Below are positions 30,724 to 31,467 of a stretch of 64,000 bases of DNA, in pieces. Every line of letters starts with the position of its first letter. Positions within the stretch are counted from its first letter, which is position 1. The notes under the pieces are model-generated. The model was not told the origin of the DNA and did no database searches. It was given only the letters and a program-made list of their open reading frames with translations. The position numbers and the translations under genes were made by a program. Source of the stretch: Kangiella taiwanensis (GTDB taxonomy: Bacteria > Pseudomonadota > Gammaproteobacteria > Enterobacterales > Kangiellaceae); NCBI RefSeq assembly GCF_020005165.1, contig NZ_JAHCLT010000001.1:372001-436000 (forward strand), given 5' to 3'.

Positions 30724-31467
30724 TTATTCTTGAAATTCTTTTATTTTATAAAAGTAATCACTCAAGATGCTTTTGTTCTTTTCAAGAATTTCTAAAGCTG
30801 TGTCTGCAAACTTCGTAAACCCACGGATTTTTATATCTATGTTGGTTACAGTTTTTTCCTCGTTTATGGTTTGATGCCACTTACCAAGTGCAAAAATATA
30901 ATCCTCAGTGGTGGGTATTTCATTACTCTTAAATGATATAGATGGTGTCCAATACATAGCTGTGCGTATGTTCATAGGATTTTTTTCATCGGTCGAGTCT
31001 TGGTGAATGAAGGATATATTCCTGATTGTTTTAATTTTTTGGTGGAAATGTTTATTTTTATAAAGTTTAGGCTTCTTAATATTATATCGCTGTAATTGAC
31101 ATATTGTTTTAAGTTGATTGTGAAGTTTCTCCATAGCTTCGAAGGTAGTAATATAATACGTTGCAACAGAGAAAATAGAACTAATGTAAACACGTTCATT
31201 AATCTTTTGATTTAGAGTTGTATCACGATAAAGCTTTTTATCTGCACTTTTACCTTTAAAATTAATCCACGAACTATCATGTTGTGCTTTATGTTTGATT
31301 TCGTGGTTTACAGCTTCTGAATGCTTATCCCAACTGTTAATAGTTATTTGAATAAAAGCTATGAGATGGTCAATATTCCAGATTAGATTCGGGTCCGGAA
31401 GTAACTTACCTTCTCTAGTGAATAGCTTTATTTGATTGCATCCTAATAATTTACTTTCTAGCTCCAT
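30724..31467 (-). CDS. Orphan hypothetical protein with an R-x5-H (HEPN-like) pattern
   Basis: A 247-aa, Lys/Ile/Asn-rich protein, strikingly more AT-rich than its neighbours, not recognised as any family. No signal peptide or long membrane helix. The central part (about 90-120, YISSIFSVATYYITTFEAMEKLHNQL) looks like helices of a bundle, and IRNISFIHQD places Arg149 and His155 in the R-x(4-6)-H arrangement of HEPN ribonucleases; this short pattern can occur by chance. It sits alone between two inverted copies of a structured repeat, between housekeeping genes, which suggests acquisition. No good ribosome binding site is seen before the ATG at 31467. Confidence 0.6.
   Translation of the reverse strand: MELESKLLGCNQIKLFTREGKLLPDPNLIWNIDHLIAFIQITINSWDKHSEAVNHEIKHKAQHDSSWINFKGKSADKKLYRDTTLNQKINERVYISSIFSVATYYITTFEAMEKLHNQLKTICQLQRYNIKKPKLYKNKHFHQKIKTIRNISFIHQDSTDEKNPMNIRTAMYWTPSISFKSNEIPTTEDYIFALGKWHQTINEEKTVTNIDIKIRGFTKFADTALEILEKNKSILSDYFYKIKEFQE

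What the first reader, a model, noticed from the sequence alone, without database searches (positions are those of the whole stretch)
30724..31467. AT-rich orphan protein with HEPN-like R-x5-H motif, a candidate defence or toxin gene
The 247-aa product is unrelated to its housekeeping neighbours, much richer in Lys, Ile and Asn, and carries Arg149-x5-His155 in a predicted helical setting, the pattern of HEPN ribonuclease active sites. HEPN proteins are common in toxin-antitoxin and anti-phage systems. A lone HEPN-like gene between structured RNA-like repeats would be a new arrangement. The motif is short and could be coincidental.
Basis: inference. Interest (0 to 1): 0.6.

Follow-up and report, generated by a model that had tools for sequence, protein, structure and literature searches.

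The report
Lone HEPN-like gene between RNA-like repeats
A rare, AT-rich, mobile-looking bacterial gene probably makes an RNA-cutting defence or toxin protein, and it sits between copies of a structured repeat of unknown function that also lies just upstream of its relative in another genus.

Summary
The ORF is real but lies on the minus strand (31467..30724, 247 aa). It is the most AT-rich gene in the window (31% GC; Kangiella genes average 45%) and is under purifying selection. R149-x5-H155 is present. The motif alone means nothing, because 58% of shuffles of this protein contain it. Relatives are rare: another Kangiella in the same spot (72%), a Shewanella (47%), and one interrupted copy inside an attC-flanked cassette. 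R149 and H155 are invariant in all four, inside the second most conserved block, and the residue after R is always N, D or H, as in HEPN RNases. Predicted helices fit, with the motif at the end of helix 3. The fold is not proven: both AlphaFold models are poor (pLDDT 37 and 47) and no HEPN profile matches. No protein partner was found. The gene lies between two head-to-head copies of a structured repeat; the upstream one is Rfam TwoAYGGAY (RF01731, function unknown). The Shewanella genome holds only two such elements, one of them just upstream of this gene's relative, in the same orientation. In Kangiella, AT-rich accessory genes, some defence-like, tend to lie at the head of these repeats. 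Best reading: a lone, horizontally acquired HEPN-like RNase. Partly supported.

The parts
30724..31467 (-). Orphan 247-aa ORF, HEPN-like candidate (P0001)
   Evidence: homologues; dN/dS about 0.19; GC 0.313
31003..31023 (-). R149-N-I-S-F-I-H155 motif; R and H invariant in all four members, next residue N/H/D/D, in the second most conserved block
31366..31398 (-). Most conserved block, residues 24-34 PDPNLIWNIDH (10 of 11 columns invariant)
31126..31131 (-). Residues 113-114: conserved acidic residue (E/E/D/D) in the predicted second helix, followed by invariant K114
   Evidence: alignment; helix (low confidence)
31520..31736 (+). Upstream repeat, Rfam RF01731 TwoAYGGAY (Rfam span 31520-31675), head toward the ORF start, on the strand opposite to the ORF
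   Evidence: 51.5 bits, gathering score 43; repeat-family extent; also upstream of the homologues in K. shandongensis and Shewanella
30498..30699 (-). Downstream repeat of the same family, inverted with respect to the upstream one, head toward the ORF end
   Evidence: own profile, trained on this copy among others; weak Rfam RF01731 match 30597-30664, 29.1 bits
30468..31495 (.). Segment replaced in another Kangiella genome (G014) by about 700 bp holding a different AT-rich orphan gene; flanks 89% and 95% identical

Best explanation
The ORF is a lone, horizontally acquired accessory gene whose product is most likely a HEPN-superfamily metal-independent RNase acting as a toxin or abortive-infection effector. 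Proposed working, by analogy with HEPN RNases: the protein dimerises through an alpha-helical core so that R149 and H155, at the end of helix 3, form a composite active site that cleaves RNA when infection or stress activates it. No partner protein was found nearby, so control would be intrinsic (autoinhibition, for example through the strand-containing insert between helices 3 and 4) or through the adjacent structured element. Shown: a constrained gene, sporadic mobile distribution, invariant R and H with a polar residue after R, and an association with TwoAYGGAY-type repeats kept in two genera. Inferred: HEPN fold, dimer, RNase activity, defence role.
For: R149 and H155 invariant in four members (72, 47 and 40% identity to the window protein). 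Only 3 R and 4 H are invariant in the protein, and this is the one pair with HEPN spacing. The residue after R is N, H, D, D, the set Anantharaman et al. give as typical (PMC3710099). Spacing R-x5-H equals that of AbiU2-HEPN proteins collected here (RNEAFGH, RNNVFAH, RHKVFAH and others), and the best local profile alignment, though not significant, lays the two motifs in register. Helices at 32-65, 77-124, 139-151 and 215-246 with R149 at the end of the third and H155 in the loop after it (same layout from the Shewanella sequence) match the published HEPN layout. An acidic residue in helix 2 is conserved. Purifying selection. Mobile accessory habit: 2 of 20 Kangiella genomes, cargo swap at the same site, attC-flanked cassette in G837, one interrupted copy. 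AT-rich genes beside the same repeats elsewhere include SIR2/ThsA-like, PDC-S31 and PDC-S42 genes.
Against: No Pfam, NCBIfam, PADLOC, PHROGs or PDB sequence match to HEPN. Both AlphaFold models are low confidence (mean pLDDT 37 and 47) and Foldseek finds nothing meaningful. The profile comparison with AbiU2-HEPN gives probability 0.2%. Only four members are known, so conservation of R and H rests on few independent lineages. Another block (PDPNLIWNIDH) is even more conserved and HEPN does not explain it.
Confidence: 0.55

Rival explanations
1. An accessory, mainly helical protein of another, undescribed fold; the R-x5-H pair is conserved for structural reasons or by the general conservation of a small family.
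For: No HEPN profile match anywhere; AlphaFold fails; the motif is common by chance; the most conserved block is a different one, PDPNLIWNIDH.
Against: R, the polar next residue, the spacing, the acidic helix-2 residue and the predicted place of the motif all fit HEPN together.
Confidence: 0.3
2. A toxin controlled by RNA: the divergent TwoAYGGAY element just upstream is transcribed and its RNA restrains, or is sensed by, the HEPN-like protein.
For: Element upstream and in the same orientation in Kangiella and Shewanella; only two elements in the 5.1-Mb Shewanella genome; no plausible protein antitoxin ORF; covarying structure in the repeat family (19 of 38 predicted pairs with two-sided changes).
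Against: The element is a dispersed repeat in Kangiella (2 to 17 RF01731 matches per genome), mostly beside housekeeping genes with no such protein. The attC-cassette copy has no match, although that copy is interrupted.
Confidence: 0.07
3. A HEPN-like domain without catalysis that binds RNA or DNA, regulatory rather than toxic.
For: Some HEPN families are inactive binders (PMC3710099).
Against: Inactive HEPNs lack the conserved charged residues; here R and H are both invariant.
Confidence: 0.08

Closest known systems
Integron-cassette HEPN (PDB 3jrt; Anantharaman et al. 2013, PMC3710099)
   Same: Lone HEPN-type gene in mobile cassettes of Gammaproteobacteria; one relative here (G837) lies in an attC-flanked cassette.
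   Different: No sequence match to any HEPN chain of the PDB; the Kangiella and Shewanella copies lie beside TwoAYGGAY-type repeats, with no attC noticed.
AbiU2-type HEPN (PF18734)
   Same: R-x5-H spacing with a similar pattern around it (RNEAFGH, RNNVFAH, RHKVFAH); phage-abortion association in the literature.
   Different: No Pfam match; profile comparison not significant; here a strand-containing insert is predicted between helices 3 and 4 (low confidence).
   Same: Family keeps R-x4-6-H and has no recorded operon partner (Table 1 of PMC3710099).
   Different: No Pfam match; no member of PF18730 in 239 gammaproteobacterial genomes or in the controls, so no direct comparison was possible.
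TwoAYGGAY RNA (Rfam RF01731)
   Same: The upstream repeat reaches the Rfam gathering score (51.5 against 43 bits).
   Different: Described as probably an RNA and not cis-regulatory (PMC2864571), with a CsrA-binding proposal (PMC4333381). The passages read here mention no link to accessory or defence genes.

Membership tests
HEPN superfamily (features from PMC3710099) | Conserved R-x4-6-H motif | tested here: met
   R149-x5-H155 invariant in four members
HEPN superfamily (features from PMC3710099) | Polar residue (N, D or H) directly after R | tested here: met
   N, H, D, D in the four members
[quoted passage not shown]
   Both AlphaFold models place it so, but with mean pLDDT 37 and 47
HEPN superfamily (features from PMC3710099) | Four-helix fold of two alpha-hairpins | tested here: inconclusive
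   Four helices predicted, arrangement unreliable; Foldseek E above 1 for every match
HEPN superfamily (features from PMC3710099) | Acidic residue in helix 2, often Ex3[KR] | tested here: inconclusive
   E/D113 conserved in predicted helix 2, but the Ex3K spacing is not kept in all members
HEPN superfamily (features from PMC3710099) | Metal-independent RNase activity | not testable with these tools
   needs purified protein
AbiU2-HEPN (PF18734) | Profile match to the family | tested here: not met
   No Pfam hit; hhalign probability 0.2% against six members
Cthe_2314-HEPN (PF18730) | Profile match to the family | tested here: not met
   No Pfam hit
Integron gene cassette | Gene bounded by attC sites | tested here: inconclusive
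   attC-like sites around the G837 relative (L064 643-682, 1381-1471, 2203-2307); no such pair noticed at the window copy
TwoAYGGAY RNA (RF01731) | Score at or above the Rfam gathering threshold | tested here: met
   31520-31675, 51.5 bits; the downstream copy scores only 29.1 but belongs to the same repeat family

The most novel reading that the evidence does not exclude
TwoAYGGAY-type repeats mark one edge, or both edges, of small exchangeable units in Gammaproteobacteria that carry single accessory genes, often anti-phage ones, with the element head facing the cargo. The HEPN-like gene is one such cargo, kept in this setting in both Kangiella and Shewanella.
Probability: 0.18. Interest if true: 0.72.

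Novelty: new member of a known kind. Interest (0 to 1): 0.45.

Why it matters
If the protein is an RNase, it founds a small HEPN family that no library used here describes, found as a lone gene with no recognised protein antitoxin. The association with TwoAYGGAY, an RNA family of unknown function since 2010, is the more general gain: it gives a concrete, testable setting (mobile, defence-like cargo) for a structured element that so far had none.

Tried and rejected
(1) Phage or plasmid origin: no convincing tblastn match in phages or plasmids and none in IMG/VR by several pattern scans. (2) A wider family: 369 gammaproteobacterial, 393 Shewanella-order and 398 phylum-level genomes gave one new relative; weak hits at E 0.002-0.005 with stops inside were dismissed. 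(3) AlphaFold twice, with the window protein first and then the Shewanella protein first; both poor, so the Foldseek hits are treated as noise. (4) A partner gene: no plausible antitoxin among ORFs of 25 aa or more beside the gene. (5) A second TwoAYGGAY downstream of the Shewanella gene: not found by Rfam, although a dispersed repeat lies there. (6) Defence enrichment beside the repeats: 3 of about 12 AT-rich head-side genes of 150 aa or more hit PADLOC against 1 of 9 control AT-rich loci; not significant. (7) The G837 relative was translated through its TGA only to align and search it.

Full report
OBSERVATION. It is flanked by a VOC/glyoxalase-like gene (29958-30359, +) and aroE (31800-32588, -). 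Its GC is 0.313 against a mean of 0.45 (sd 0.03) for 330 ORFs of the same chromosome, none of which is as low. GC3 is 0.29 against 0.55 for aroE. R149-x5-H155 is exact. On its own the motif is uninformative: R-x4-6-H occurs in 58% of shuffles of this protein and in 194 of 330 ORFs.

RELATIVES. The window lies in a Kangiella-type genome (nearest named relative: Kangiella shandongensis). The gene is present in 2 of 20 genomes of the genus. The K. shandongensis copy is 72% identical at the same place. A Shewanella sp. copy is 44-47% identical. A fourth, 40% identical, is interrupted by one TGA, in G837. Searches of 369, 393, 398 and 174 genomes, of phages and plasmids and of IMG/VR found no more. 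Between the two Kangiella copies dN is 0.17 and dS 0.90, so the gene is under purifying selection. Its synonymous difference (pS 0.52) is lower than that of aroE (0.75) or the VOC gene (0.79), which may mean later transfer or only AT-biased codons.

THE MOTIF. In the four-row alignment 66 of 247 positions are invariant. The two densest blocks are PDPNLIWNIDH (24-34) and the block around R149-H155 (148-158, 8 of 11). Invariant R residues are 92, 149 and 168; invariant H are 34, 49, 142 and 155; only 149 and 155 have HEPN spacing. By my estimate three R and four H placed at random would give such a pair in about 15% of cases, and the constant N/D/H after R lowers that several-fold. Anantharaman et al. 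(PMC3710099) list the signs of HEPN: R-x4-6-H at the end of helix 3, N, D or H after R, an acidic residue in helix 2, and inserts that include a beta-hairpin after the motif in Csx1. The two low-confidence AlphaFold models give long helices at 32-65 and 77-124, a short one at 139-151 ending at the motif, a stretch with two strands in the second model, and a last helix at 215-246. This fits, but pLDDT of 37 and 47 cannot prove a fold, and Foldseek results are noise. No Pfam, NCBIfam, PADLOC, PHROGs or PDB match to HEPN exists. Comparison with six AbiU2-HEPN proteins put the motifs in register but was not significant. HEPN is therefore likely, not shown.

THE REPEATS. The element upstream is Rfam TwoAYGGAY (31520-31675 +, 51.5 bits). 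An inverted copy of the same repeat family lies downstream (30699-30498), so both heads face the gene. The family in Kangiella is structured: of 38 predicted pairs, 19 have two-sided changes that keep the pair. There are about ten copies per 464 kb in this genome and 2 to 17 RF01731 matches in each Kangiella genome searched. Head-to-head pairs without a gene between them also occur. The Shewanella genome has only two RF01731 matches in 5.1 Mb, both below the gathering score (40.3 and 36.4 bits); one lies about 110 bp upstream of this gene's relative, head toward it, as in Kangiella. By my estimate chance would put an element that near one given gene about 3 times in 10,000. G837, whose copy is interrupted, has none.

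CARGO BEHAVIOUR. The stretch between the VOC gene and aroE differs in most Kangiella genomes. Against G014, sequence is 89% identical up to 30467 and 95% identical again from 31496; between these points the downstream repeat and the HEPN-like gene are replaced by a different AT-rich orphan, while the upstream repeat is shared. G009 has the downstream repeat but neither the gene nor the upstream repeat. In G837 the relative is the second of two cassettes bounded by attC-like sites. Over 92 repeat groups in nine Kangiella genomes, 23 have a neighbour under 39% GC against 10 of 87 ordinary gaps (Fisher p 0.02), and in 22 of 26 gene-repeat pairs that neighbour is at the head (the count includes the window locus and its K. 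shandongensis ortholog twice each). After merging related loci the split is 8 head-only to 0 tail-only (p 0.008), but the paired GC test weakens from p 0.001 to 0.06-0.07 when short ORFs are dropped. Named head-side neighbours include a SIR2/ThsA-like gene, PDC-S31 and PDC-S42. The excess of defence genes over control AT-rich genes is not significant.

CONCLUSION. A lone HEPN-like RNase used for defence or as a toxin is the best explanation (0.55). The surprising part is the setting: a structured element of unknown function that keeps company with this gene in two genera.

Noticed in passing
L053 (G015) at the VOC-aroE site, ORF 852-1478: Another Kangiella carries at the same site an unrelated AT-rich 208-aa ORF with IRNAYSH (R-x4-H, N after R), a second HEPN-like motif at this spot; no Pfam, PADLOC or NCBIfam match.
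   Followed up: partly
L173 3092-3301 and ORF 1603-2949: In K. shandongensis a SIR2/ThsA-like gene (PADLOC 1.9e-20) has a TwoAYGGAY-family repeat about 140 bp upstream, head toward it, as at the finding.
   Followed up: partly
L149 (Shewanella G464): The only other RF01731 match of this Shewanella genome lies about 1.2 kb from a DUF4435/AriB-like gene (PADLOC 1e-13).
   Followed up: partly
L064 643-682, 1381-1471, 2203-2307: Two gene cassettes bounded by attC-like sites; no integrase recognised by eye in the 16 kb around them (L069), so possibly a cluster of attC sites lacking an integrase.
   Followed up: partly
L235 1759-2352: AT-rich 197-aa ORF at the head of a repeat in G014 with an LENAIKAFLVY pattern reminiscent of HEPN/AbiV; no Pfam match over cut-off.
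   Followed up: no
window 4155-4307: TPP riboswitch (RF00059, 54.6 bits, just over the gathering score).
   Followed up: no
window 51617-56155: Three copies of a GTHVAGT-type coding repeat, probably paralogous subtilisin-like protease genes in a row, two followed by near-identical terminator-like repeats.
   Followed up: no
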